Below are positions 1 through 60,567 of a stretch of DNA of 64,000 nt, piece by piece. How positions within the stretch are numbered: the stretch's first letter is position 1; the number at the start of each line of letters is the position of its first letter. The translations under genes and the position numbers were made by a program. The DNA comes from Psychrobacter sp. UBA3480 (lineage in GTDB: Bacteria; Pseudomonadota; Gammaproteobacteria; Pseudomonadales; Moraxellaceae): contig NZ_DFQV01000028.1 of NCBI RefSeq assembly GCF_002377945.1, positions 29,459 to 93,458 on the forward strand, in the 5' to 3' direction. Under the pieces are notes generated by a model. The model saw only the letters and a list, made by a program, of their open reading frames with translations. It was not told the DNA's origin and made no database searches.

Positions 1-36
1 TCTAATTTTATAGGCTTTAAGAATTTGCGTGGGCAT
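1..36 (-). CDS. tnpB: TnpB (IS200/IS605 OrfB family), N-terminal fragment cut by left edge
   Basis: Read on the minus strand, an ATG at 36 opens MPTQILKAYKIR and runs off the window. This is the usual start of TnpB/OrfB proteins (short N-terminal tail, then KAYKxRLxP), the RNA-guided nucleases carried by IS200/IS605 elements and ancestral to Cas12. Only 12 residues are visible, so the call rests on resemblance to the family start and to the second tnpB at the right edge, which opens MKINKAYKFRLEP. A TATAAT-like box lies at 75-80 on the same strand. The gene lies just beyond the truncated end of the cas1 relic, so the element may have inserted there. Confidence 0.6.
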   Translation of the reverse strand, partial: MPTQILKAYKIR

Positions 37-786: not shown

Positions 787-3700
787 TCACTTTTGATAAG
801 GCTTTGTTTGCACAAACTCCAACCAGTTTTTGTTCGTGATTTTTAAATCAAGACCTTTGTAATCATCTCCAGTATGGCTTTGGATCTGACGCATAACCCA
901 TAAACCTTTTAGAGCGATATGATAAGCGCCATTAGCGTCAGCATCCTTTGGCAACACAGTTGATGTTTCAGACGAGCTATCTGCGTCCATACCATCATAA
1001 TCTCTTGTGTCAAAGAACACGCCAGCATCATTACTAACAGGCGATAGAATAAAATCCTCGACCTTAGAGCCGTTGGTTTTACTGTATCGCATCGCTAGCA
1101 AAGTTTTTAATAAAAAGATGATACTGCTATACATGGACTTATCACCTTTGGACTTAATCATGGGACGTAGATCACGACCAGCCAGCTCTCCGTGATAGTC
1201 GATATCATAAGAAGAGAACAAAGCCTTTAGCTCGGTATTTACATCAATCTGCTTTTGGCCGCCTTTATTATTGTTGGCGTTTTTATCATAAACATAACGC
1301 TTAGTACCATGAGAGCAGATAGTCCAGTCTGTACGGGTATCTTGCGCCCGAGTACCAAAATTACTGTAATCAAACTCGAACTCAAAAAAATCTTTTTCTT
1401 TGTTGTACCGAATGCTATCGAAGCGATCAATAAAGTCTTTGGCTTGCTCGACGTTCTCATATTTAGGTTTTAGCAGATCAACAAATCCTGTTACGGGATC
1501 TATTTTACTTGTATTCCATGCTGGCACATAGAACAAGAACCCTGTTTGTTTACCCAAGTCCTTAAACGCGGTAAAAGCACTTGTTAACTGCAGAGCCTTA
1601 CGCGCGCCGCCGAGTGCATCTGACTCAAACTCCTTAAAGACTAAATAGTTCAACTTGTCGATTAAAGCCTTCTCAAATGCTTGATACACCTGCTTCTCGA
1701 CCTTAAAACGCCCGCGCTTAAATCCAAAGTTCAAGTCCTCAAGAACAACCACCGCATTGTACTCATAAATAAGTTTAGCAAGCTTATGTACGACTTGGCT
1801 TAAGTAACCCTTCTTTAGATCCTTAATGTTCTCAATCACACCCCAATTTTTTCTAGCGTCATCCCGTTCTTTTTCACGGGTATCAAGCAGCGTATGATAT
1901 GGGGTTACGGTCTTATTGCTTGATACAACATCATTCAGACTCTCTTGATGAATAATGAGGCCATCCTGATTGATAACTGTGAGGTAGAGTAGGTGCCTCT
2001 CGCCGCGATCAATACCGATTAGGTGCATATCTTTGTTCTGATCATCACGAATAGTGTCCTTAACCAAGTTGTTAAACTGACCAGGACCAATACCATCGGC
2101 TTTAAAGTTCATCGTTACTGGCAAATGCAATAAGAACTTATCGGCAGTATATCGCTTGTCTTTAACAATCTCATAATCAAGTACTCGACTAGCATCAGGC
2201 GTGAGTGGGTTTTTCGAATATACACGCTCACCTTTTTTGTGCTTAATGGTATTTTCGGGATCTATCGACGCTTTTCTGTAGAATAGCTCTCCCTCGCCGT
2301 TAAGTTTGTAAACGGCGTCTTTAAGGTTTTCATCATCAAACAACGCTTTAAAGTAGATTGTATGCAAGTTAGGCTTGCCCCGTGAGTTTACAGAGAAGTC
2401 TTTGTTATAAATCTCAAACAAATACAACTGACCGTTTTCAACAAGGGTGTCGATATAATCAGCATCTACGTCCTCAAACGTAACCTTATAGCCCTGCTTA
2501 CTCACCTCGTTATAGAACTCACTGATATCTTTATATGTACTGGTGTCAGAGAATTTAAAGCCAAACTCATGCCAATCTTTGTGCTTGGCCACGCTTTGCT
2601 TAAAGAAGTCAATCAACTGATGGCAATGCTCAATATTGAAATCATCCCCTTTTTTATGAGTGCCTTTTTCATAATTCTCAAGCAACTGTTGTGAAGGGGC
2701 AAAATAATCGATGTTACCTTTAGCAAAGAACACTTTAGGGAACATCTTATTCGGCCCAGGTAGCAGCTTATAGCGCATTTTTTGATAAGGGCTATTACTG
2801 TTTTCTGATCCAGGTGTAATCTCAGGGGCCTGCTCAAACACCTTCTTATGAGACTTATCCATAAGCGCTAAGTAGTAACGACCGTCTCTTTGAAGCAAGA
2901 CACTTAAGCGAGACTTTTCTTTATTGACATCCCAACCTTCCAACAAGTTAGCATTTTCAAAGTTTAGTTTGAATTGCTCGTTGCTATACGGTTTTTGGCT
3001 AATGTAGTTACGTACTTTATTATAAAGCGGGAAGAACAGCTTTAGCTCTTCATACAAGGGTAAGAAGTCATTATAGAAACGCGCATCGATATCAAGAAGG
3101 CTGTCTTCTTCAATAACAGAACCTAGAGGCTTCACAAAATGTATTAGGTTCATGACGGCATCTAAAAAATGCTTGATATTTGCAACCTCTGCACCTTTTT
3201 GCAGCAGCTGGCGTGTACCTTCTTCGATTTCAGAATTCAGCACGCCTTTGATAGTGGTGTACTTGTTATCAATATCCCGTAGTAAGTCCACAGCAGCCTT
3301 ACCGTCCTCTTTAGGCTCATTGACAAAGTACCTTGTAAAGTAATCTTGCACAGGGTTTATGATGCCAGACTTGCGTAAGCCGTTGTCTGAGTCAGTGCTG
3401 GCAAGATAAGCCTGATAAGCCGCCTCTATTGTGGCCACACTATGATAACCCTTAGTAAAGGCGTCTTTCTTTTTGTAAAGATCACTGGTTTTTTTCTGTG
3501 ATTTGGCAGCGGCGAGTTGGTCAAGATGGTCTGGATTGATATGGTGATCATAATAATAACCAAGCGCTATAGGTAGTACCGAATAATCACCAAACAGACG
3601 ATTTGATATTGAAGAAATCGCCTTATCGTTTTTGAGGTAAATCTTTGTTAGATCGAAAGAGGGTAGGGACGCAACAAGGTGTTTTAATGAATCAAGTAGG

Positions 3701-4728
3701 GTGTGCTCACTACTGTCGTTTGGCACCATAAGCAAATGCGATAGGTAGTAGTCATTAATGGCATCATACAGCTCACGATCATCGGCAAACTTCTCAGGCA
3801 GGAATGACAAAGAGCCTCTATCACTTAGTATTTGCTTGTATAACGGTCTTATTTTAGGTGCTTTACGGTTGCCACTACTTCTTGGTGATTGTTGGTTATA
3901 TTCGTTGATAAGCTCGTTTAACCCTTGCGTTTTTTTGGCACCACTTTGAGTAGACACGCCGCCTATAAGCTGATTAAACCGGTCAATACCTTGCTGGCTT
4001 AGCAGCTCGTTATAAAATGAAATATTTAATACATCATCAAGAACAAAGCCTGCAGAGAATATCGATGATAGCTCAGTGGAAACCTGATTCTGGAGCGACT
4101 CATACAAAGCAGGGTAGTCATCTTTAATGAGTTGTAGGCTATTCATATTCTCAATGAATTTAGGCAGGTTCTCATGGATGATACGGAAGGCTAAAGCAGT
4201 ATGCTTAGCATCAGCGCTATAAATATTTTTGCGGTTTTCATGAAACCCTATGAAGTAGGTCGCAAAATTCTTAAAGTCATCTACAAAGAACAAGTCGGCA
4301 TCATTCTTCTTATTGTATTCCAATACGAATGACTCTAGGTTCTTAGTAAGCAATTCCTTCTTAAAAAGCTCACTAAACTCAGTCTTGAATTCAGCGGCTG
4401 TAAATGCGCTGGTAATCTGTTTGCGTAGATTATCTTGAATACGAACCAATTGCTTTTTTGTCTTATCGTCAGGATTTTTCTTATTATCTTCATAGGAGGC
4501 AAGAAACTCATCCAAATTGCTTATAGATAACTGGCTAAGCGCTCTGGATATGAAGTCCTTATGATACACATCGATGGTCTTTTTTATGCGCTTGTAATTA
4601 GTAGCAAGCTTCTCATCAGTTTCTACAAAGCCTTTTTTCTGAACATGCTCTAAGGTTTTACCCATAGGCCTCAATTCAAACTTCAAGGTTTTAGTGACGC
4701 TGTACTGGTTGGTAAATCTGTCTAACAT
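787..4728 (-). CDS. cas12a: Cas12a (Cpf1), RNA-guided DNA nuclease of type V-A CRISPR
   Basis: This 1313-residue protein is full length and closely resembles Moraxella Cas12a. It processes its own pre-crRNA and cuts DNA next to a T-rich PAM with one RuvC site. RuvC acidic residues are intact: D907 in GIDRGERHLLYLTVI, E997 in VVVLEDLNFGFKRGR and D1264 in DADANGAYHIALKG. The Nuc-domain arginine is probably R1214 (AMRYSKT). The RNA-processing region keeps its His and Lys residues (IKHKKGE, SKN, VKDKRY). The start follows a GAGG site six bases upstream. No cas2, intact cas1 or cas4, or CRISPR array is visible, so it needs crRNAs from elsewhere. A hairpin shared with many accessory genes here lies in its leader. 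Confidence 0.97.
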   Translation of the reverse strand: MLDRFTNQYSVTKTLKFELRPMGKTLEHVQKKGFVETDEKLATNYKRIKKTIDVYHKDFISRALSQLSISNLDEFLASYEDNKKNPDDKTKKQLVRIQDNLRKQITSAFTAAEFKTEFSELFKKELLTKNLESFVLEYNKKNDADLFFVDDFKNFATYFIGFHENRKNIYSADAKHTALAFRIIHENLPKFIENMNSLQLIKDDYPALYESLQNQVSTELSSIFSAGFVLDDVLNISFYNELLSQQGIDRFNQLIGGVSTQSGAKKTQGLNELINEYNQQSPRSSGNRKAPKIRPLYKQILSDRGSLSFLPEKFADDRELYDAINDYYLSHLLMVPNDSSEHTLLDSLKHLVASLPSFDLTKIYLKNDKAISSISNRLFGDYSVLPIALGYYYDHHINPDHLDQLAAAKSQKKTSDLYKKKDAFTKGYHSVATIEAAYQAYLASTDSDNGLRKSGIINPVQDYFTRYFVNEPKEDGKAAVDLLRDIDNKYTTIKGVLNSEIEEGTRQLLQKGAEVANIKHFLDAVMNLIHFVKPLGSVIEEDSLLDIDARFYNDFLPLYEELKLFFPLYNKVRNYISQKPYSNEQFKLNFENANLLEGWDVNKEKSRLSVLLQRDGRYYLALMDKSHKKVFEQAPEITPGSENSNSPYQKMRYKLLPGPNKMFPKVFFAKGNIDYFAPSQQLLENYEKGTHKKGDDFNIEHCHQLIDFFKQSVAKHKDWHEFGFKFSDTSTYKDISEFYNEVSKQGYKVTFEDVDADYIDTLVENGQLYLFEIYNKDFSVNSRGKPNLHTIYFKALFDDENLKDAVYKLNGEGELFYRKASIDPENTIKHKKGERVYSKNPLTPDASRVLDYEIVKDKRYTADKFLLHLPVTMNFKADGIGPGQFNNLVKDTIRDDQNKDMHLIGIDRGERHLLYLTVINQDGLIIHQESLNDVVSSNKTVTPYHTLLDTREKERDDARKNWGVIENIKDLKKGYLSQVVHKLAKLIYEYNAVVVLEDLNFGFKRGRFKVEKQVYQAFEKALIDKLNYLVFKEFESDALGGARKALQLTSAFTAFKDLGKQTGFLFYVPAWNTSKIDPVTGFVDLLKPKYENVEQAKDFIDRFDSIRYNKEKDFFEFEFDYSNFGTRAQDTRTDWTICSHGTKRYVYDKNANNNKGGQKQIDVNTELKALFSSYDIDYHGELAGRDLRPMIKSKGDKSMYSSIIFLLKTLLAMRYSKTNGSKVEDFILSPVSNDAGVFFDTRDYDGMDADSSSETSTVLPKDADANGAYHIALKGLWVMRQIQSHTGDDYKGLDLKITNKNWLEFVQTKPYQK

Positions 4729-4873: not shown

Positions 4874-5488
4874 TTAGGCATGACTTTTTATCAATTCATG
4901 CGCTTCATCTAATCGCACAAGGTTTTTAACGAACGTGGACAACTGTGATTCCAGCACTAAAGCGTCATCAGTTTTGTTCTCAATGACGTGTAATGGCTTT
5001 GATGTTGCAGGCGGGTTGTAACCTGTCACTTCATTATGAGCATCCCAATTGGCCAATTTCCAATTATCTCGCGCCTCATTTCGGGAAACCAGACGAGTTT
5101 TTGCCAAATCGGCATCAGTGCTCATCCACACGAGTACTAAAATAGCGTCAAATGGCTTAATTATCTCTTCTAGACGATCCAACCAGGCGTCATCTAAAAA
5201 CTGCTCCATAAACGGGGCGTTGCAAATCACATCTGTTGTACGCAAAGATATGTTATCGACTGCAAGCGCCTCTAGTGTTGCATATTCAAGCGGAGCCACC
5301 TTGTCTTGATAGACATCACTCTCGCGATCGGTACTAGCTTGACCTAAAATCGATAAGATTTTTGGGCTAAAAGCATGGCTCATCGTGTCCTTATCTAAAA
5401 AGACTGCACCTAGCGATTCTGCTAAATCTTCACTGAAACGGGATTTGCCACTACCGGCGGGGCCGCCAACCAATATCAACTTTCTCAT
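4874..5488 (-). CDS. P-loop kinase-like ATP-binding protein (AAA_33 type)
   Basis: About 204 residues beginning MRKLILVGGPAGSGKSRFS, a Walker A loop straight after the first beta strand, as in small nucleotide, tRNA and zeta-toxin-like kinases. A second acidic motif (FLDKDTMSHAF) and a strand ending VLVWMSTD follow. The substrate cannot be told from sequence. The ATG at 5488 is preferred over the one at 5494 because AGGA lies six bases before it. It lies about 40 bases after the winged-helix gene at 5534-6157 and upstream of cas12a on the same strand, so the three may be co-transcribed, though an inverted repeat separates it from cas12a. Confidence 0.7.
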   Translation of the reverse strand: MRKLILVGGPAGSGKSRFSEDLAESLGAVFLDKDTMSHAFSPKILSILGQASTDRESDVYQDKVAPLEYATLEALAVDNISLRTTDVICNAPFMEQFLDDAWLDRLEEIIKPFDAILVLVWMSTDADLAKTRLVSRNEARDNWKLANWDAHNEVTGYNPPATSKPLHVIENKTDDALVLESQLSTFVKNLVRLDEAHELIKSHA

Positions 5489-5533
5489 AAACATTCCTAT
5501 AATTTAAGTAAGTGCTCTAACCAAGTGTATCTA

Positions 5534-52986: not shown

Positions 52987-53022
52987 TATTAATGATTAAC
53001 TAAATATTTTAAGGAGAAGATC

Positions 53023-53526
53023 ATGAATGTATCATTGCTTAAGCATGTCAAACAAAGAACTGATAATGATTTCAGATGTATTGATGATCATGCTCACACC
53101 TGCATTCTAAAACTAACCGCAGCTGACGCTATCTTTGTTTTAAAGTTTGTTAACATTTCAAAGCCAGCTGCAGTAAAGCAAGTATCTGGAAAAGATCGTA
53201 AGCTAACTCAGGTCGAACTAAAAAGTGCTGAAAATTTCTTAAGTGAGTTTTTGTATGGCGCTATCGGTGAGACTTTACTAGAAGATGAAACCAATGTGCT
53301 TGTAGCAAAAAAAATTACGCGGGCACTGGGCCATGATTCATTTTTTAAGCATTTAATTTTATCTAAAAAACTGATGGTTAGTGGCGAACGCAACTTCATG
53401 CTGGCAGAAGTTGCACACGCGACTGGCTTGGATGTTGCAGACTCTAACGGTTTGGTAGTATCTATTGTGAATCAAGTCACAGAAATCCTAAGAAGCCCTC
53501 TAACAGAAAAAAGAGTAGGTGTGTAA
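53023..53526 (+). CDS. Unknown protein, paralogue of the one at 28430
   Basis: 167 residues. VKQVSGKDRKLTQVELKSAENF matches VKQVSGVSRRVTDEEFSRLNA at 28430, with a similar beta-rich N-terminal part. AAGGAGAAGATC is a strong ribosome-binding site. Its stop overlaps the next start (TAATG), so the two are translationally coupled. Function unknown. Confidence 0.6.
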   Translation: MNVSLLKHVKQRTDNDFRCIDDHAHTCILKLTAADAIFVLKFVNISKPAAVKQVSGKDRKLTQVELKSAENFLSEFLYGAIGETLLEDETNVLVAKKITRALGHDSFFKHLILSKKLMVSGERNFMLAEVAHATGLDVADSNGLVVSIVNQVTEILRSPLTEKRVGV

Positions 53527-53972
53527 TGAATACTTTTAGCCCGGTTAACTTATGCAGAGTAGATAAGCTTGATGAGCAGCTAGCGGCAGCAGCCCAAGAT
53601 ATTATTGGGCAAATTAATTGCACGCTATATACGCACGTTAAGACTTTATTTACAAAGCATCGCTATCACTCGCTGCAAAATATTGAAATCAATAGAATTA
53701 AAAAGCTGTTAAACCTAAAGCTTTACATTGATTTTAAAAAAGATGCTAAAGCGTTATATATTGATCGTTACTACATTGAAACTTTATTGAGTTTCATAAA
53801 AATCAATCAAATCAATTATTCAGCGGGATACTCATTCTTCACTGAGATGTCTAATAGTGTCTATTCGCATCTATTTACCCACGAAGAGAGAGAATGGATT
53901 TCTGATCAGAAAAAATGCTTTGAAGCAGGTGTTGCCGCTAGTGCAAAACAAGAGTTTGCACTAGAAGGGTAA
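53526..53972 (+). CDS. Unknown protein, 148 aa, coupled to upstream gene
   Basis: Not recognised. Helical, basic in the middle (NRIKKLLNLKLYIDFKKDAKALYIDRYYIETLLSF). The start codon overlaps the preceding stop, typical of partners made together. A weak ACCC...GGGT hairpin with seven T at about 54028-54067 may end the unit. Confidence 0.55.
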   Translation: MNTFSPVNLCRVDKLDEQLAAAAQDIIGQINCTLYTHVKTLFTKHRYHSLQNIEINRIKKLLNLKLYIDFKKDAKALYIDRYYIETLLSFIKINQINYSAGYSFFTEMSNSVYSHLFTHEEREWISDQKKCFEAGVAASAKQEFALEG

Positions 53973-54104
53973 TATAAGCGTTAATTGCTTGTTACGTTTA
54001 ATTATATTAATATACCTACTTATTCGACCCGTACCAAAAGCGGCAAGATAAAGTGGGTATTTTTTTGTTTAGAGTTCCAAGGCATTCGTTTATATGGTGA
54101 ATTA

Positions 54105-54797
54105 ATGAAAAGTAGCGCAATCAATATATTTCTACTAGAGACACCGGCCGATGCTGGAGAGCGCTTGCTGAGCTGGCGTTTGAATGCAAAAATAACTCAA
54201 GACGACCTAAGCAAGAAACTAGGTTTGACAAGGCGTTACTCTATTTCTGATTACGAAAGAGGGGAGATACCTATAACAAATGTTATGTACTCATTAGCAG
54301 CCATTATTCTTGGCAAGCATCAGAACACCCCAGGGAACATTCGCATTGATAACAAGACGATCGTTTACGATACGCGTCAGATGCAAACTGACGTAGCTTA
54401 TTTCATCAGCAAAAATCTTAGCAATAAAGGTTGGAGTCTAGAGCGGCTATCGGAACAGAGCGGCATAACAGTAAAAAGGTTAAATGAATATTTAAAGGAT
54501 AAAACAGAACCAAGCCAGAAGGACTGGGCGGGCATACAAATTGCGCTCGATGAATACGCAAGCGGTTTTAATTACTCAAAAGAGCTGATCGCCGCTAGAA
54601 ATAAAGCAAATGTATCCCAGAAAGAGGCGGCCAGGATATCTGGCGTCACATCTCAATCTATTTCTAATTTCGAAAACAACAGAACTATACCGAAATCACA
54701 AACTTGGTCAGCATTGATGTTAGCACTGGGCTTTCATCCTCAAATCACACTAAACAATAAAGAGATTTCAGAAGATAATATTTTTGGCAAAGTCTAA
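54105..54797 (+). CDS. Double helix-turn-helix protein, 230 aa
   Basis: Two XRE modules: about 20-60 (RLLSWRLNAKITQDDLSKKLGLTRRYSISDYERGEIPITN) and 165-210 (LIAARNKANVSQKEAARISGVTSQSISNFENNRTIPKSQTWSALMLALGFHP), with a third HTH-like stretch between (NKGWSLERLSEQSGITVKRLNEYLKDKTEPS). It is a paralogue of 50966. Start 54105 (GGTGA ahead) is preferred over 53985, which lies in non-homologous sequence. A candidate regulator of the cassette promoters. Confidence 0.72.
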   Translation: MKSSAINIFLLETPADAGERLLSWRLNAKITQDDLSKKLGLTRRYSISDYERGEIPITNVMYSLAAIILGKHQNTPGNIRIDNKTIVYDTRQMQTDVAYFISKNLSNKGWSLERLSEQSGITVKRLNEYLKDKTEPSQKDWAGIQIALDEYASGFNYSKELIAARNKANVSQKEAARISGVTSQSISNFENNRTIPKSQTWSALMLALGFHPQITLNNKEISEDNIFGKV

Positions 54798-54854
54798 CGG
54801 CATTGCCATCTAATCACTTAGGTATAACCACTTGATTAACTCTAAAGGGATAAA

Positions 54855-55610
54855 ATGAAAATATCAGAACCAACTAACTGCGAACTAATAAAGTTCTCCA
54901 AAGAAAGAAAAACCGCACTGATTGCAGAAATGAAAAAGCTTATATCGCTAAGTGCGGCATGCGAATACTATCTTGCGTCTCTATGCGAACGAACCGACAT
55001 CACTGTTTCGTTTGATAAATTCAATCCTAAAGAGTTATCAAGATGGTCTCGCGAATGGGCCAGTCAGGAGCGCTTTAAAAAGCAGGGCGCATTGCAGCAA
55101 ATACTCTATTCAGGACTTGGTATGATATTTAAAGCCAATGACCCAGTAATCGCAAACCTCTCTTACTGTTATATTGATGTCGCCCAAAAACTCATGTTTT
55201 ATTCAGGGGATTTTGAGAGTAGTAGAGATTACTTGCAGGCTTTCACTGATTGCTGCAGGGACGAAATAGAAGGCTCTATTAATATAGAGCGGCATGACCA
55301 GTTTAAAACAAAAGAGTTCGTGCCAGCAATAGAAGAGCATGAGATAACGCTTAGTGTTGATGAGTGTTTTTTTGTTGTGAAGCTAAAAAAATCATCAGAT
55401 AAAAAGGGTGCGTTGATTTACTCGATACAGCCTCAACAGCTTGATGAAAGCAACGAGCGATCAGTACTATACAGATTAACAATGTCATACTTGAAGGATA
55501 TAGTCGGATTATTTGCTTGCGCGCTATGGGTTGATACAACTGGAGAGCAGGTATCGGGCTTTATGGAAGTTTCAATGATTGAATTCACCAAAAGTAGGGT
55601 AGTTGGCTAA
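54855..55610 (+). CDS. Unknown protein, 251 aa
   Basis: Not recognised. Several cysteines (CEYYLASLCERTD, TDCCRDE) and a beta-rich region from about 160. AAAGGGATAAA precedes the ATG. It follows the double-HTH gene by about 60 bases and ends in a terminator shared with the convergent membrane-protein gene. Confidence 0.5.
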   Translation: MKISEPTNCELIKFSKERKTALIAEMKKLISLSAACEYYLASLCERTDITVSFDKFNPKELSRWSREWASQERFKKQGALQQILYSGLGMIFKANDPVIANLSYCYIDVAQKLMFYSGDFESSRDYLQAFTDCCRDEIEGSINIERHDQFKTKEFVPAIEEHEITLSVDECFFVVKLKKSSDKKGALIYSIQPQQLDESNERSVLYRLTMSYLKDIVGLFACALWVDTTGEQVSGFMEVSMIEFTKSRVVG

Positions 55611-55625
55611 TACCTTATTTTTCTC

Positions 55626-55673
55626 AAAAAAAGAGGACTCAAACCTAAAGACAGGTGGAGTCCTCTTTTTTTT
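55626..55673. terminator. Terminator between convergent genes
   Basis: AGAGGACT/AGTCCTCT stem with eight T on the plus strand and A-run on the other side. Confidence 0.85.
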
Positions 55674-55681
55674 GCAGGTTT

Positions 55682-56197
55682 TTAGAATACCCAGCTTAGT
55701 ATCAATACAGCTACGAACCAAAGAAAAGCAATGATCGCAGGACCTATGGTGATGGCAGCAAAGCCTGCACTATCTTCAAACTTCTCACTAATAGTTTTAG
55801 CAATGTAAGCATAGATAGATAGAACAAAAAGAGAGTAGAAAGCGATGCCGATCAACGAAAATATCAAATTTAAGTTAGGGTACGGGGTTAGTTCTAAAAG
55901 CTTTAACCAGCGCCAAACCAAGCCAACACTCTGAATGGGTAAGTTGAAAAAGTAGTGATAAAAGGCGGCGATGATATTATAAGGAAAATCAAAGGCGGCA
56001 TAATTCTTGATAGCGCCACTAAGCCAGTAAATAGCGAAACACAAGCCAGCTATAGGCACCGCAACAGCAAGGCGGATAGCGTTCATGTCATGTATTGTTG
56101 CGTAAGAAACCAAGCTTCCGTCCGAGTAGCGGCCAGTACCAAGTACCTTGCTAGCATTAATAAGGTTGTTGCTATTGGAGTTCATATCATTATTCAT
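55682..56197 (-). CDS. Three-helix membrane protein with a Cas12a-type repeat in its leader
   Basis: 171 residues with hydrophobic segments near 40-60, 105-130 and 145-170 and a polar N-terminus. IIAAFYHYFFNLP...LELTPY marks it as a paralogue of the protein at 44155. Start 56197 is chosen because GAGGTG precedes it; the ATG at 56209 overlaps the repeat. Directly upstream, 56208-56227 on this strand reads as a complete Cas12a crRNA handle, so the Shine-Dalgarno and first codons occupy the guide position. A TATAAT box lies at 56293-56298. Function unknown; a membrane-acting toxin kept silent by Cas12a is one testable idea. Confidence 0.65.
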   Translation of the reverse strand: MNNDMNSNSNNLINASKVLGTGRYSDGSLVSYATIHDMNAIRLAVAVPIAGLCFAIYWLSGAIKNYAAFDFPYNIIAAFYHYFFNLPIQSVGLVWRWLKLLELTPYPNLNLIFSLIGIAFYSLFVLSIYAYIAKTISEKFEDSAGFAAITIGPAIIAFLWFVAVLILSWVF

Positions 56198-56207
56198 ACA
56201 GCACCTC

Positions 56208-56243
56208 ATCTACACTTAGTAGAAATTGATTAAGTCGCATCAA
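56208..56243 (-). CRISPR. Solitary Cas12a-type CRISPR repeat
   Basis: The last 20 bases, AATTTCTACTAAGTGTAGAT (56227 to 56208), equal the crRNA handle of Lachnospiraceae Cas12a as I remember it and fit the TCTACTnnnnGTAGAT rule of all type V-A repeats. The preceding 16 bases (TTGATGCGACTTAATC) bring it to the usual 36-base repeat length and loosely resemble the 5' half of Moraxella repeats. There is no second copy, so this is not an array. Confidence 0.7.
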
Positions 56244-56386
56244 GGATTTACAAACCTTATTAAAACGAAGCTATTTATTAAAATATACATTGATTATAAC
56301 ATATTTTCTATTATTATTTATAGCAATGTTTTCTTTTTTTTAGAGTTCAATCCCTCTTGTACCAAAGGAATCAGAATATTTTTATA

Positions 56387-56465
56387 TTAAATTAAATAGT
56401 ATTAAAGGTTGATTTTGTACGATTTATTGGTTATAATAAGTTATTGGTTAGGCAGTTAGCCAACC
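56387..56465 (+). promoter_or_regulatory. Cassette promoter and leader hairpin for the gene at 56493
   Basis: TTAAATTAAATAG element, TTGATT, spacer with GTACGATTTATTGG, TATAAT at 56432-56437, then GGTT-A-GGC-AGTTA-GCC-AACC (56446-56465), fully paired. Confidence 0.85.
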
Positions 56466-56492
56466 ATAAAACTATCAATTGGAGCAAATTTT

Positions 56493-57020
56493 ATGAATTC
56501 AGAAAAAAGAACAGCGTTGATCGCAGCAATAACAGCAGCGGCATCAAGCAAGATGAATCCAATCAGTATTGTAGCGGAGGATAATTACGCAAACTTCAAA
56601 CCAATGTTGAACGACGATGGCACCTACAGTATCTTTGCTGCCGTAGAAATCAAAACGGCTTTCGAGCCTGTACCTGATTTCAAATACAACTTTGCAGATA
56701 TCAGCTTTGAGGTTCAGTTTGAGCAATGCACGTACAATGCAGACAGTAAGCAGTACGAACAAGCCATTGACGAAACAAGTTACCACATCAGCTATGGCGA
56801 TTTAGAAAACAACATTATGTTTGGCTACGCTGATAGCGCAGATTTAGAGAGCTGCGTTTGGGCAGATGAGGGTATTGATGAGATAAGCGATGCAGAGGAC
56901 AATAGTATGTCTGTAGAAATCCTGCACTCATTGTTCCATACAACAGATAATGAGGTTGAGATTATCACAGCGATATTTGATAAAGTCAGCAAAACGACAG
57001 ATGCGCCGGATGCTGCGTAA
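56493..57020 (+). CDS. Cassette family A protein, 175 aa
   Basis: FEPVPDFKYNFADISFEVQFEQCTYN is the clearest version of the family A block shared with 37768, 43556, 58012 and 63066. Strongly acidic C-terminal half (DSADLESCVWADEGIDEISDAEDN). GGAGC precedes the ATG. One-gene cassette with shared promoter, hairpin and terminator. Function unknown. Confidence 0.65.
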   Translation: MNSEKRTALIAAITAAASSKMNPISIVAEDNYANFKPMLNDDGTYSIFAAVEIKTAFEPVPDFKYNFADISFEVQFEQCTYNADSKQYEQAIDETSYHISYGDLENNIMFGYADSADLESCVWADEGIDEISDAEDNSMSVEILHSLFHTTDNEVEIITAIFDKVSKTTDAPDAA

Positions 57021-57040
57021 GCGCCTTTAACGCATCCTCA

Positions 57041-57071
57041 AAGCCGTTCTAGCTACTAGGACGGCTTTTTT
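57041..57071 (+). terminator. Terminator of the recurrent cassette type
   Basis: Same sequence as at 40762. The bases that follow (GCCTGCAGCAGATGAGAGAATC) recur in altered form after the terminator at 62808. Confidence 0.85.
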
Positions 57072-57218
57072 GTGCGTGAAGCCCGCCTGCAGCAGATGAG
57101 AGAATCCTAGTGCTATGGTCATAGGGTAGCTATGGCATTAACAGACAAAAGCGCCGGTAACAGGTCTGTTTAATCACTTATCGCCAGTGGGTTTCAAATA
57201 AAAAATTGCATATAAAGC

Positions 57219-57276
57219 TTGTTTTTGTACGACTTATTGGGTATAATAAGTTATCGATTAGGCAATAGCGCCAATC
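57219..57276 (+). promoter_or_regulatory. Cassette promoter and leader hairpin for the gene at 57298
   Basis: TTGTTT, 17-bp spacer with GTACGACTTATTGGG, TATAAT at 57242-57247, then GATT-A-GGC-aatagc-GCC-AATC (57256-57276). Confidence 0.8.
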
Positions 57277-57297
57277 ATAAATATTAAGGTCAAAATT

Positions 57298-57948
57298 ATG
57301 TTAAAACCGATCATCGAACCAAATGCCAAGATTGAAAAACGACTGGCCGCCCATGGTCTTATTCTTTCCATGGACTACGACTCAAATACTGTGCCTGGCA
57401 CCAAAAATATGATTGCCCAGGTAAACTCTTCTAATCTAGCTATATGTAAAACACAAGCTGTGTCAGAAGCGACATTAGATAGTACGGTAAACACTATGAT
57501 CGATGAAATAGTAGGGCAGATTGACACAAGCCACGCCAACAGCATTCAAGTGAACATAGAGTTCGCTTATAATTTTAAAAATACTGATAACTATATTTCA
57601 GATTTAAACGAAATCATCAACGAGCGCTACGGCTTCAAAATGGCAGTTGGCACCGTTGAACAAGACGATTTTTTCGATAAGTTGACCGTAAGTCTTGATA
57701 GTATTCCGCCTTTCATCAACATGGCGAATGCCTCACCAATTAAATTAACCGCTGCTATGATGCAAAATATCGGTGAAGTTATAGAAATTGGATATCATCA
57801 GCCACCAAAATCACAAGAAGAGGTTTTGGCGCTGCTTAGAACAGAGTCTACCTATGACAGATGGTCGCCTATGCTGAAAGAAGCATTGTTTATGACATTG
57901 CTTGAGAATATTGGTGGTGTAAACCTCATATACACTGCGAATAAATAA
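57298..57948 (+). CDS. Unknown cassette protein, 216 aa
   Basis: Not recognised. Starts MLKPIIEPNAKIEKRLAAHGLIL and contains a beta-rich middle (NSIQVNIEFAYNF) and a helical C-terminus. Shared promoter and hairpin; the ribosome-binding site (AAGG) is close to the ATG. It forms a two-gene unit with 58012, separated by 63 bases that include another copy of the hairpin. Confidence 0.6.
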   Translation: MLKPIIEPNAKIEKRLAAHGLILSMDYDSNTVPGTKNMIAQVNSSNLAICKTQAVSEATLDSTVNTMIDEIVGQIDTSHANSIQVNIEFAYNFKNTDNYISDLNEIINERYGFKMAVGTVEQDDFFDKLTVSLDSIPPFINMANASPIKLTAAMMQNIGEVIEIGYHQPPKSQEEVLALLRTESTYDRWSPMLKEALFMTLLENIGGVNLIYTANK

Positions 57949-57971
57949 GATTTTAGGACTGAAAAATAAGA

Positions 57972-57988
57972 GATAGGCATCTGCCATC
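57972..57988 (+). promoter_or_regulatory. Intercistronic copy of the leader hairpin
   Basis: GAT-A-GGC-ATCT-GCC-ATC between two genes, without promoter elements. It shows that the hairpin is kept apart from the promoter and so probably acts as RNA. Confidence 0.65.
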
Positions 57989-58011
57989 CCCAATCAAATA
58001 AGGCAAATATT

Positions 58012-58527
58012 ATGAATATGCAGACAAAACAGTTAGCAATCTCCGCAATTTCTGCAGCGATCACACAAAAACTCTCTGACCAAGCATTTATGCCATCAGT
58101 AACAAGCATAGAGCCTTACGAGCAAGATGAAGGTTTGTTTTCAATCACAGGCATTGTAGGTATCGAAGTGAAGATAGATGCTGTTCCGGGCTTAGATGCC
58201 ACCCATGTCGATGTAGCCTTTGAGTGCTTATTCAAAGACTGTAAAATTGATAAAAAGACGCTCGAATATACAGGCGGCTCAGACAATTACCAATTTGTTA
58301 TTGGTGAGTTAGATCACAATCTGACACTGGCAACTACTACAGGCACTCCTGATGTGCATGACTGGCGCTATCAAGAGCTTTCAAACCCAAACGGTAAAGA
58401 CAGAAGTGATATAACTAAAGCGGCGCTATCCGAAGCGCTTGCCCGCCTAGAGGATTCTAGAAAAAAAGAGCTTTTAGTCGGCATTTTTGAGATTCTAAAA
58501 AAAGAAAGTCCAGTCCATATTGCCTAA
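58012..58527 (+). CDS. Cassette family A protein, 171 aa
   Basis: IDAVPGLDATHVDVAFECLFKDCKID corresponds to the family A block (V-P...strand...F-x-x-C). N-terminal helix LAISAISAAITQKL resembles ALIAAITAAASSK in the 56493 protein. Preceded by the intercistronic hairpin and AAGG. Probably co-transcribed with 57298. Function unknown. Confidence 0.6.
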   Translation: MNMQTKQLAISAISAAITQKLSDQAFMPSVTSIEPYEQDEGLFSITGIVGIEVKIDAVPGLDATHVDVAFECLFKDCKIDKKTLEYTGGSDNYQFVIGELDHNLTLATTTGTPDVHDWRYQELSNPNGKDRSDITKAALSEALARLEDSRKKELLVGIFEILKKESPVHIA

Positions 58528-58614
58528 TACATAACAACACCTGATCTCTACGCAATAAAACGCGTGGTTTTCAGGTATCATTCGATAAATAAAGTAATTC
58601 AGTGAGGCTGTATC

Positions 58615-59175
58615 ATGAGTCACATCAATCACCCAAGCTTTCTTGGTAAAGAGAAAGTATCCGAGAAGCCTATATTAATTGGCCATTTATTCAAAGATGT
58701 TAAGTTTAGACATAATGGCTGGGTACAAGGCAATACCTTGTATAAAGGTTTTTTTGAACATGGCAAGGTTAAGATTTGGATCAATAGGCATATCTCTCTG
58801 AGTCGTGATGAAATTTCAATGGGGTTAAGACATCCTCGTGAGTTCGCATCATTTAGCGCCAATGAAATCTTAAAAATCGTCTATAAAGATGTAAACATTA
58901 GAGATTTCACTATTGAGCAACTTGAGCATCTGGTTAAAAAAAACGACAATTTGGCGAAATTAAGCGATGCTGAAAAAATGGTATTAAGATCAGATTGTAT
59001 AATGTACGAAAAGATCCTAACTAAACGGTACGACGATATAAAAAATCAAGGTGCCCAGGGTGCAGTGCCTGATGCCTTTGCTATACATAACCTGAGACAA
59101 GATATGGCACTCTTTAGCATGGAGGCAGATATGACAATCCGTGGGATTGCTGCAGGCATTTATGATTATGATTAA
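58615..59175 (+). CDS. Unknown protein, 186 aa
   Basis: Not recognised. Basic first half (FKDVKFRHNGWVQGNTLYKGFFEHGKVKIWINRHISLSRDE) and a helical second half. GTGAGG precedes the ATG. Ends in a terminator whose T-run leads into the next cassette promoter. Confidence 0.55.
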   Translation: MSHINHPSFLGKEKVSEKPILIGHLFKDVKFRHNGWVQGNTLYKGFFEHGKVKIWINRHISLSRDEISMGLRHPREFASFSANEILKIVYKDVNIRDFTIEQLEHLVKKNDNLAKLSDAEKMVLRSDCIMYEKILTKRYDDIKNQGAQGAVPDAFAIHNLRQDMALFSMEADMTIRGIAAGIYDYD

Positions 59176-59199
59176 CCGCTTTAATAAGCGGTTTTTTTA
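59174..59199 (+). terminator. Rho-independent terminator
   Basis: AACCGCTT-taat-AAGCGGTT with seven T. Confidence 0.9.
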
Positions 59200-59209
59200 G
59201 CGTTAATGC

Positions 59210-59267
59210 GTGCAATAGTACGACTTATTTGGTATAATAGTTACAAGAGATAGGCGGTAAGTCGTCT
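59210..59267 (+). promoter_or_regulatory. Cassette promoter and leader hairpin for the gene at 59298
   Basis: Weak -35 (GTGCAA), spacer with GTACGACTTATTTGG, TATAAT at 59233-59238, then AGAT-A-GGC-GGTAA-GTC-GTCT with G-T pairs. Confidence 0.7.
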
Positions 59268-59297
59268 TGATTTTAACTAACCCTTTGGAAGAAAATC

Positions 59298-59843
59298 ATG
59301 ATTGCATCATTTGAAAAAACTGAAATTAACAGTGTTATGCCAAGCGAGCTACTTGGCACGCCAGCAGAGCTAGCTAGTAGCGTAATCAACATGCTAGGGG
59401 TGAGTTTAGAGAGCTTGAAGGATATCAAGCAGTATATAAGCAATAAAGGAGCTTCATTCCTTGAAGAAAGTGGTGATGTTGAATGGGAATGTATGATTGT
59501 AGGAACGGGCCAAGACTTGTTTTATGTGCGACCTATGCTGAGCGAGAGTTATTACGACTGCTACAAGGATGATGAGTGCGTAGGAGCGGGAATGGATTCA
59601 TATCAGCTTGGGTTAGTTGCGAGTACTATCGGCCTTCACGAATATGGAGTCAAAACAAAAAACGAAAAGCTTGTGGATAAGGCCTTATTACTTGCTGGAC
59701 ATGTAGAGTGTACGACAGGAGATCTAATTAGCGGTTACGCTAAAGCCAATCCTGACTGGATTGAAGATTCCCACGAAGAGCCTGAGCATATCGTACTAGC
59801 TGCAAGCTTTCTTTGCGACTTTCAAGCGTGGTTCTACAGATAA
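59298..59843 (+). CDS. Unknown acidic cassette protein, 181 aa
   Basis: GMDSYQLGLVASTIGLHEYGVKTKNEKLVDKALLLAGHVE...NPDWIED recalls the C-terminal layout of ArdB/KlcA-type antirestriction proteins (a Gly-Leu-Val helix, then LxxxxxxLRxx...HP), but the match is too weak to assign. Strongly acidic. Shared promoter and hairpin; GGAAG precedes the ATG. Confidence 0.55.
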   Translation: MIASFEKTEINSVMPSELLGTPAELASSVINMLGVSLESLKDIKQYISNKGASFLEESGDVEWECMIVGTGQDLFYVRPMLSESYYDCYKDDECVGAGMDSYQLGLVASTIGLHEYGVKTKNEKLVDKALLLAGHVECTTGDLISGYAKANPDWIEDSHEEPEHIVLAASFLCDFQAWFYR

Positions 59844-59904
59844 CAGAATACAATAACCAATCGCCAAATTTGCACACCCAAAACTCAGCATAAGAGATCT
59901 AGCT

Positions 59905-60567
59905 ATGAGAAATACTGACAACGTAGAAACAAGTACTACCAACACTACAAGAGAAAACCACCACAAACCTGCCAGCGATAACGCCAAGACATTGGCGGAG
60001 AGACTAGAGCAGTCCTTGGATGAGAACAACCTAAAGCAAGTAGATGTGTCAAAGGCGCTAAAAGTTAGTAAGGCAGCCGTCAGTAAATGGCTCTCCGGTG
60101 CATCAGAGCCATCGCGACAATACTCAGACATGTTGGCTGAGCTGTTGAATATAAACGTAGACTGGTTGTGTTATGGCGAAGGAGCCAAGGAAAAATTACT
60201 GCGCGACGATATATTCGTACATCCGACAGAAAACTGTTCGATTGATGATCATTATGTTGTTGTTGATGATAGCGACGACCTATCGTTTCTTGGGCGATTA
60301 CTCGCTAAGATCGATACGCGCAAAAAAGACACAGTTATCACGTATGCTTTTTATGAGACAGCGGGTGGTAGTTTTATTGGCAGCATAGAAGAGATGAGTG
60401 CTTCAAATAACGATGTAATTAGTTCAGATGGGGCGGTGTTTAATACTGAAAATCCGTCGGAGGACATCGGTAACATGATTTATAGTTTTTTTGGTAAAAG
60501 TCCCATGGCCAAAATTTTGTATAAAAAAATCCCTATTGAGGTCAAGTACTTTATAACCATTGACTAA
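59905..60567 (+). CDS. XRE-family repressor-like protein, 220 aa
   Basis: After a polar start, residues 30-85 form an XRE helix-turn-helix (LAERLEQSLDENNLKQVDVSKALKVSKAAVSKWLSGASEPS...LAELLNINVDWLCYGEG), the layout of phage CI-like repressors. The C-terminal half has no visible peptidase site (no Ser-Lys pair), so it is unlikely to be SOS-cleavable. It is a candidate for the GTACGACTT regulator. It follows the 59298 gene by about 60 bases. Confidence 0.72.
   Translation: MRNTDNVETSTTNTTRENHHKPASDNAKTLAERLEQSLDENNLKQVDVSKALKVSKAAVSKWLSGASEPSRQYSDMLAELLNINVDWLCYGEGAKEKLLRDDIFVHPTENCSIDDHYVVVDDSDDLSFLGRLLAKIDTRKKDTVITYAFYETAGGSFIGSIEEMSASNNDVISSDGAVFNTENPSEDIGNMIYSFFGKSPMAKILYKKIPIEVKYFITID

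What the first reader, a model, noticed from the sequence alone, without database searches (positions are those of the whole stretch)
56197..56243. Solitary Cas12a crRNA handle placed over the ribosome-binding site of a membrane protein
The minus strand carries an exact 20-base Cas12a handle, with the SD and first codons of a 171-residue three-helix protein as the 'guide'. Sixteen fixed positions make chance unlikely (expected about 3 in 100,000 for a window this size). Cas12a cleaves pre-crRNA just 5' of the handle and stays bound, so it could cut this mRNA and block translation. The same window has an intact cas12a with wrecked adaptation genes. Inference: Cas12a silences a membrane protein, possibly a toxin, and is thereby kept (CreTA-like), or the element is an RNA anti-CRISPR that occupies Cas12a.
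Basis: partly seen in the sequence, partly recalled or inferred. Interest (0 to 1): 0.92.

Follow-up and report, generated by a model that had tools for sequence, protein, structure and literature searches.

The report
CRISPR repeat at a gene's start
A plasmid gene for a small membrane protein begins with a single stray CRISPR repeat placed exactly where ribosomes must bind, so the Cas12a made from the same contig probably cuts and blocks that message; similar arrangements in unrelated phages and in one conjugation operon suggest an overlooked way to use or trap Cas12a.

Summary
The minus-strand handle is exact. The match extends to 30 of 36 bases (29 of the last 30) of the genome's own 45-copy Cas12a repeat, whose array lies just outside the window on the same plasmid-like contig. 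It is the genome's only exact handle-core match outside that array, and ends 0 nt before the Shine-Dalgarno of a 171-aa membrane-type protein of unknown function.

Against CreTA/CreR: the 'guide' has no PAM-adjacent 10-nt seed match in the genome. The same scan finds 9-13 nt targets for 6 of 6 solitary repeats beside cas12a in relatives (five strong, one weak). No toxin evidence was found.

The architecture recurs, with 4-nt-loop handles: handle-SD-ATG hits 14 viral contigs, one stem-permuted control 0. Genes include tail-fibre, major-head, Erf and (weakly) tape-measure proteins. One T4SS operon carries a repeat at the virB10 SD; an M. bovis plasmid lacks the 62-bp segment holding it. The focal 5-nt loop type has no such parallel.

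Best explanation: Cas12a cleaves and occupies the leader, silencing the gene in cis. Rival: the mRNA is an RNA decoy (leader-embedded Racr). Close homologues' leaders and expression could not be tested.

The parts
56208..56243 (-). solitary degenerate CRISPR repeat (36 nt; 30/36 identical to the array repeat, 29/30 over the last 30)
56208..56227 (-). exact 20-nt Cas12a handle (stem TCTAC/GTAGA, loop TAAGT); predicted Cas12a cut just 5' of 56227
   Evidence: alone with its guide it folds as the handle hairpin; cut position inferred from known Cas12a processing
56184..56207 (-). 24-nt 'guide' position: contains SD, start codon and first codons; no PAM-adjacent 10-nt seed match in the genome
56204..56207 (-). 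Shine-Dalgarno GAGG, 0 nt after the handle, 6 nt before ATG
55682..56197 (-). 171-aa membrane-type protein P0001, no Pfam/PHROG/NCBIfam match
56293..56301 (-). extended -10 promoter-like TGTTATAAT; would give a leader of about 90 nt
   Evidence: read; the consensus scan lists only a weaker nearby site on this strand, and no more sites than in shuffles
55626..55672 (-). terminator-like inverted repeat with T run after the gene (loop longer than the scan allows)
   Evidence: read; not listed
787..4728 (-). cas12a, 1313 aa
115..723 (-). Cas1 fragment, 202 aa
44155..44592 (+). distant paralogue of P0001; no handle upstream

Best explanation
The leader of this plasmid gene carries a working Cas12a pre-crRNA element. 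Cas12a from the same contig binds the handle in the mRNA, cleaves just 5' of it, and stays bound with the SD and start codon lying in its guide channel, so translation of the membrane protein is blocked in cis. The gene is released when free Cas12a is scarce: Cas12a lost, inhibited, or saturated by crRNA. Shown: exact host handle, the only one off-array, handle abutting SD, intact-looking Cas12a, no trans seed target, similar geometry in unrelated mobile elements. Inferred: transcription, binding, cleavage, repression, and that repression rather than trapping of Cas12a is what was selected.
For: Host repeat identity and uniqueness. Zero spacing to SD. Cas12a domains and motifs. No seed target, unlike 6 of 6 cas12a-adjacent solitary repeats in relatives: five with 10-13 nt, one with 9 nt that 13 of 200 shuffled guides equal. 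The handle is perfect while the 5' part has all 6 changes (6 of 6 in the first 16 positions, 0.4% if uniform). Recurrence with 4-nt loops: 14 viral contigs against 0 for one permuted-stem control; handle 0-3 nt from the SD in 13 of 14 although 0-7 was allowed. A 62-bp presence/absence ending exactly at the virB10 SD. An Erf leader with the handle and a 76%-identical relative without it, SD kept. Engineered precedent in yeast, up to 81-fold (PMC9943656, section 17).
Against: No expression or binding data. Leaders of the close homologues P0002-P0004 could not be seen; paralogues lack the handle. Five of the 6 changes lie in the first six bases, so a truncated copy with one change explains the pattern without selection. 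The leader's fold is no better than shuffles and the promoter call is weak. The focal 5-nt loop type gave no natural handle-SD-ATG parallel: one genome hit inside an array, one accidental-looking viral hit. 46 of 118 surveyed viral handles lie inside ORFs and look accidental, so single viral cases can be chance. Protein function unknown, so no benefit of repression is visible. One mRNA must compete with a 45-repeat array.
Confidence: 0.45

Rival explanations
1. Leader-embedded RNA anti-CRISPR: the mRNA is a decoy. Cas12a is drawn onto an abundant message carrying a useless guide. The cassette came from, or still serves, a mobile element facing Cas12a hosts.
For: Similar geometry in phage contigs before tail-fibre, major-head, head-scaffolding, Erf and (weak match) tape-measure genes and in a T4SS operon of a Cas12a-bearing relative. 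V-A Racrs inhibit M. bovoculi Cas12a (PMC10651486, passages). Intergenic viral handles are common: 72 of 118.
Against: This contig carries cas12a and its array, so a decoy would hurt its own system. A decoy need not abut an SD; short intergenic gaps could force that in phages, less so in this leader.
Confidence: 0.27
2. Relic: a fragment of the array landed in the leader and is tolerated; Cas12a may bind it without consequence.
For: The array lies about 57 kb away on the same contig; 29 of 30 bases match, including non-handle bases; no 5-nt-loop parallel elsewhere.
Against: Recurrence of handles at the SD in unrelated mobile elements.
Confidence: 0.2
3. CreR/CreA-type guide RNA that directs Cas12a to a promoter in trans (CreTA-like addiction or cas autoregulation).
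For: CreR is reported for type V-A (review PMC12737573, passages).
Against: Best PAM-adjacent seed 5-7 nt, no better than shuffled guides; no exact 10-nt seed anywhere in the genome. Positive controls: 10-13 nt in five, 9 nt in a sixth cas12a-adjacent repeat.
Confidence: 0.04
4. The processed RNA is a guide against the same gene on competing plasmids that lack the handle (inter-plasmid exclusion).
For: The guide spans a start region whose protein sequence MNND is kept in P0002 and P0003.
Against: Competitor DNA not available. In the one phage pair seen, the handle-less relative has no PAM at that point and diverges in the seed.
Confidence: 0.04

Closest known systems
RNA anti-CRISPRs (Racr, solitary repeat units), including RacrVA1-3 (PMC10651486, passages)
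   Same: solitary repeat mimic on a mobile element, same Cas type
   Different: this one is the leader of a protein gene, abutting its SD, and shares a contig with cas12a; the terms ribosome, start codon, untranslated and capsid do not occur in that paper's main text
CreR of type V-A (review PMC12737573, passages; the original paper was not found in the library searches)
   Same: off-array crRNA-like element tied to Cas12a
   Different: no seed target at the cas promoter or elsewhere, whereas CreR-like repeats beside cas12a in relatives have one
CreTA / CrePA (same review, passages)
   Same: idea of a gene silenced by a Cas-bound crRNA-like RNA
   Different: no separate antitoxin guide, no toxin evidence, not in the cas locus
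Engineered Cas12a-responsive mRNAs (PMC9943656, abstract and section 17) and CARTRIDGE switches (PMC10115826, passages)
   Same: Cas12a repeat in a 5' UTR; cleavage or binding represses the mRNA
   Different: synthetic, in yeast or mammalian cells; here natural and bacterial, with the SD in the guide

Membership tests
Type V-A CRISPR repeat | handle and flank match the repeat of a co-resident Cas12a array | tested here: met
   30/36, handle 20/20
Type V-A CRISPR repeat | part of an array | tested here: not met
   no other repeat within the window at <=13 mismatches
CreR/CreA guide | PAM-adjacent partial complementarity to a cas or toxin promoter | tested here: not met
   controls
CreTA | toxic gene or RNA | not testable with these tools
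   only negative family and fold searches
Racr (solitary repeat unit) | single repeat mimic on a mobile element, not next to cas genes | tested here: inconclusive
   single, on a plasmid-like contig (RepA), 51 kb from cas12a, but the same contig holds cas12a
Racr (solitary repeat unit) | inhibits Cas12a interference | not testable with these tools
   needs an experiment
Racr (solitary repeat unit) | neighbouring acr/aca genes (often) | tested here: inconclusive
   10 proteins at and around it scanned with NCBIfam: one has HTH-repressor-like hits below cut-off, no Acr named

The most novel reading that the evidence does not exclude
Cas12a is a natural post-transcriptional regulator. Plasmids and phages place its repeat at the SD of chosen genes, so that free Cas12a cleaves and caps the mRNA: a translational off-switch that doubles as a Cas12a trap (leader-embedded Racr).
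Probability: 0.4. Interest if true: 0.88.

Novelty: new variant of a known kind. Interest (0 to 1): 0.74.

Why it matters
Known uses of stray CRISPR repeats are trans guides (CreR, CreTA) and small-RNA decoys (Racr). A repeat fused to the ribosome-binding site of a protein gene would make Cas12a's RNA-processing activity a gene-control device and tie mobile-element gene expression to the host's CRISPR state. It is directly testable with one reporter. In nine paper searches (open-licence PMC only) I found only engineered versions.

Tried and rejected
CreR/CreA mode: rejected by seed scans with positive controls. Chance origin of the focal repeat: rejected. Rfam: one miRNA-family match far below its gathering score, at the terminator-like repeat. 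Toxin or known family for P0001: none in Pfam, PHROGs, NCBIfam; AF2 with 14 sequences gave pLDDT 62 and Foldseek no match at E<=0.001, so no function is claimed. Close homologues in phages and viral contigs: none; in PLSDB only 30%-identical ones in M. osloensis. Near relatives of window 53000-60000 in PLSDB: none. Focal handle plus C in viral contigs: none. 5-nt-loop handle+SD+ATG: one genome hit, inside an array (L071), and one viral hit that looks accidental (L072). Self-targeting spacers on the contig: only matches of 16 bases or less. L120 and L116 leaders in named phages: no match. Cas12a in PLSDB: one distant hit; in phages none. Only one permuted control was run.

Full report
OBSERVATION. 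The handle is exact at 56208-56227(-). The genus is taken to be Psychrobacter: a relative of the contig's second P0001-like protein is named Psychrobacter celer; this is inference. The array is at C5:25209-28052, just outside the window, with 45 repeats. The solitary copy matches 30 of 36 bases; all six differences fall in the first 16 positions, five of them in the first six. TCTACTNNNNGTAGA occurs 44 times in the genome, 43 of them in the array. In 100 genus genomes TTTCTACTNNNNGTAGAT occurs in 2: this one, and one with a different loop and no repeat flank.

ANATOMY. Reading 5' to 3' on the minus strand: an extended -10-like TGTTATAAT (56301-56293), about 45 nt of leader, the 36-nt repeat, GAGG directly after it, six bases, ATG, 171 codons, then a terminator-like inverted repeat. 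The handle with its guide folds as the expected hairpin. The whole leader is not unusually stable, and neither promoter nor terminator is supported by the scans. Any Cas12a bound to this handle would have the SD at guide positions 1-4 and the start codon at 11-13.

CAS12A. 1313 aa, five Cas12a domains; the best PDB match is a chain named ReChb, followed by Cas12a/Cpf1 chains. Motifs IKHKK, SKNP and VKDKR in the pre-crRNA-processing region and GIDRGE, EDLNFGFK and DADANGAY in RuvC are present (their roles are recalled). Cas1 is a fragment, and an IS605 OrfB gene lies between the array and it.

PROTEIN. P0001 has three 68-72% relatives among 5.8 billion proteins; a profile finds 14 proteins, itself included. 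In the family (taken to be Moraxellaceae) 3 of 348 genomes, this one included, have any match. Two paralogues lie on C5; neither has a handle before it. In M. osloensis plasmids the relative sits downstream of relaxase genes beside an HTH gene, so a plasmid-biology role is likely, but nothing says toxin.

TRANS GUIDE TEST. Cas12a (REC1) is in 10 of 348 genomes: this one and nine of genus g14, taken to be Moraxella. Of these nine, six have a solitary repeat beside cas12a and three have none in the stretch fetched. Five were scanned first: the guide's first 10-13 nt recur after a TTA PAM 78 nt upstream (200 shuffled guides reached the observed length 0, 0, 2, 0 and 0 times). The sixth (G321, 4-nt loop) has a 9-nt TTA-adjacent seed 244 nt away on the other strand, which 13 of 200 shuffles equal. 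This is the CreR arrangement, strong in five and weak in one. For the focal guide the best seed is 5 nt near itself (96 of 100 shuffles as good), 6 nt near cas12a (37 of 100 in 3 kb, 59 of 100 in 6 kb) and 7 nt on the contig (30 shuffles). No YYN-plus-10-nt exact seed exists in the genome. So it does not work like CreR or CreA in trans.

RECURRENCE. A pattern scan for handle, SD and ATG gave, for 5-nt loops like the focal one, one genome hit (inside an array) and one viral hit that looks accidental. For 4-nt loops it gave 14 viral contigs; a control with the stem permuted gave 0, one control only. Thirteen of the 14 loci hold a single handle; L114 has two. Eleven of the 14 have an ORF of 69-400 aa at the pattern's ATG; L111 has one 5 nt further on; L108 and L110 do not. 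By my reading of the sequences the twelve form nine groups. Eight of the twelve proteins were scanned with PHROGs (not L111, L112, L115, L119): tail (L107), tape measure (L113, weak), head scaffolding (L116), Erf-like annealing protein (L117), major head protein (L120); L109, L114 and L118 have no match. Handle-to-SD distance is 0-3 nt in 13 of 14, although 0-7 was allowed. Most show no recognisable repeat 5' of the handle by eye, as expected if only the Cas12a-bound part matters. Of 118 handles outside two arrays (L112-L120 left out, 16 near-duplicates kept) 72 are intergenic, 22 in sense ORFs, 24 antisense; an SD and start within 40 nt lies downstream in 7, against 2 on the opposite strand (6 against 1 of the 80). 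So leader handles are a minority of viral handles, and many in-ORF ones are probably chance. For the Erf gene a search returned 9 loci: two are the L117 and L119 contigs themselves, with the handle; the other seven, 76% to 40% identical, lack it in the 70 bases upstream, and the 76% one keeps the GGAGGT SD.

A CONJUGATION-OPERON PARALLEL. In 348 family genomes handle+SD (no ATG demanded) occurs in 7. Outside arrays there are three places: the focal one, one accidental-looking (G047), and G306:C55, in a Cas12a-bearing g14 genome. There a 36-nt repeat-like element with a 4-nt loop ends one base before the SD of virB10 (TrbI) in a virB8-virB9-virB10 operon; the start is TTG, as annotated in the M. 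bovis relative, or an ATG formed at the handle's end. Fourteen M. bovis plasmid records match this stretch at 88.5%, each over 739 bases to my 801; the one I aligned (1 of 14) lacks a 62-bp segment that ends at the repeat's last base, with the SD intact. Gain or loss cannot be told.

MECHANISM. Cas12a's crRNA maturation would cut 5' of the handle and leave the protein on it; that is established for Cas12a (recalled) and exploited in yeast, where a repeat in a 5' UTR lowered reporter output up to 81-fold (PMC9943656, abstract and section 17). For a contig that encodes its own Cas12a, cis silencing of P0001 is the simplest useful outcome. For phages and conjugation operons a decoy is at least as likely (RacrVA1-3 inhibit a V-A system; PMC10651486, passages). 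The physics is shared; I put binding and cleavage in vivo at about 0.8, selected cis repression at 0.45, decoy at 0.27.

KNOWN AND NEW. The solitary repeat is a known kind of thing; its fusion to an SD in natural genes I did not find described in nine searches of an open-licence library (listed under why it matters), nor in the passages seen of PMC10651486, PMC12737573 and PMC11656645. Novelty: new variant of a known kind.

Noticed in passing
L107, L109, L111-L120 (IMG/VR contigs): Solitary 4-nt-loop Cas12a handles abut the SD of phage structural and recombination genes.
   Followed up: partly
L250 / L253 (G306:C55) against L257 (M. bovis plasmid): A Cas12a repeat-like element sits at the virB10 SD of a T4SS operon; an M. 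bovis plasmid lacks the 62-bp segment holding it.
   Followed up: partly
L097, L098, L101 (beside cas12a): The CreR-like repeat is followed 17-18 nt later by the ATG of a 346-347-aa lipoprotein-like gene in 3 of 5 genomes (ApbE by Pfam in the one scanned), so it may also act on that mRNA.
   Followed up: partly
C5:28340-29494 (window 1-36 holds its end): IS605 OrfB/TnpB-like gene between the CRISPR array and the Cas1 fragment.
   Followed up: partly
L102 (G315:C58:30968-30984): A full solitary repeat far from cas12a in a g14 genome; best PAM-adjacent seeds near it and near cas12a are only 5-6 nt.
   Followed up: partly
C5:27667 and 27923: The two array spacers following these repeats are identical but for one base.
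   Followed up: no
window 4874-5494 (-): P-loop kinase / zeta-toxin-like gene directly upstream of cas12a.
   Followed up: no
L156, L177, L114: Viral loci with two handles about 40-50 bp apart: possible mini-arrays.
   Followed up: no
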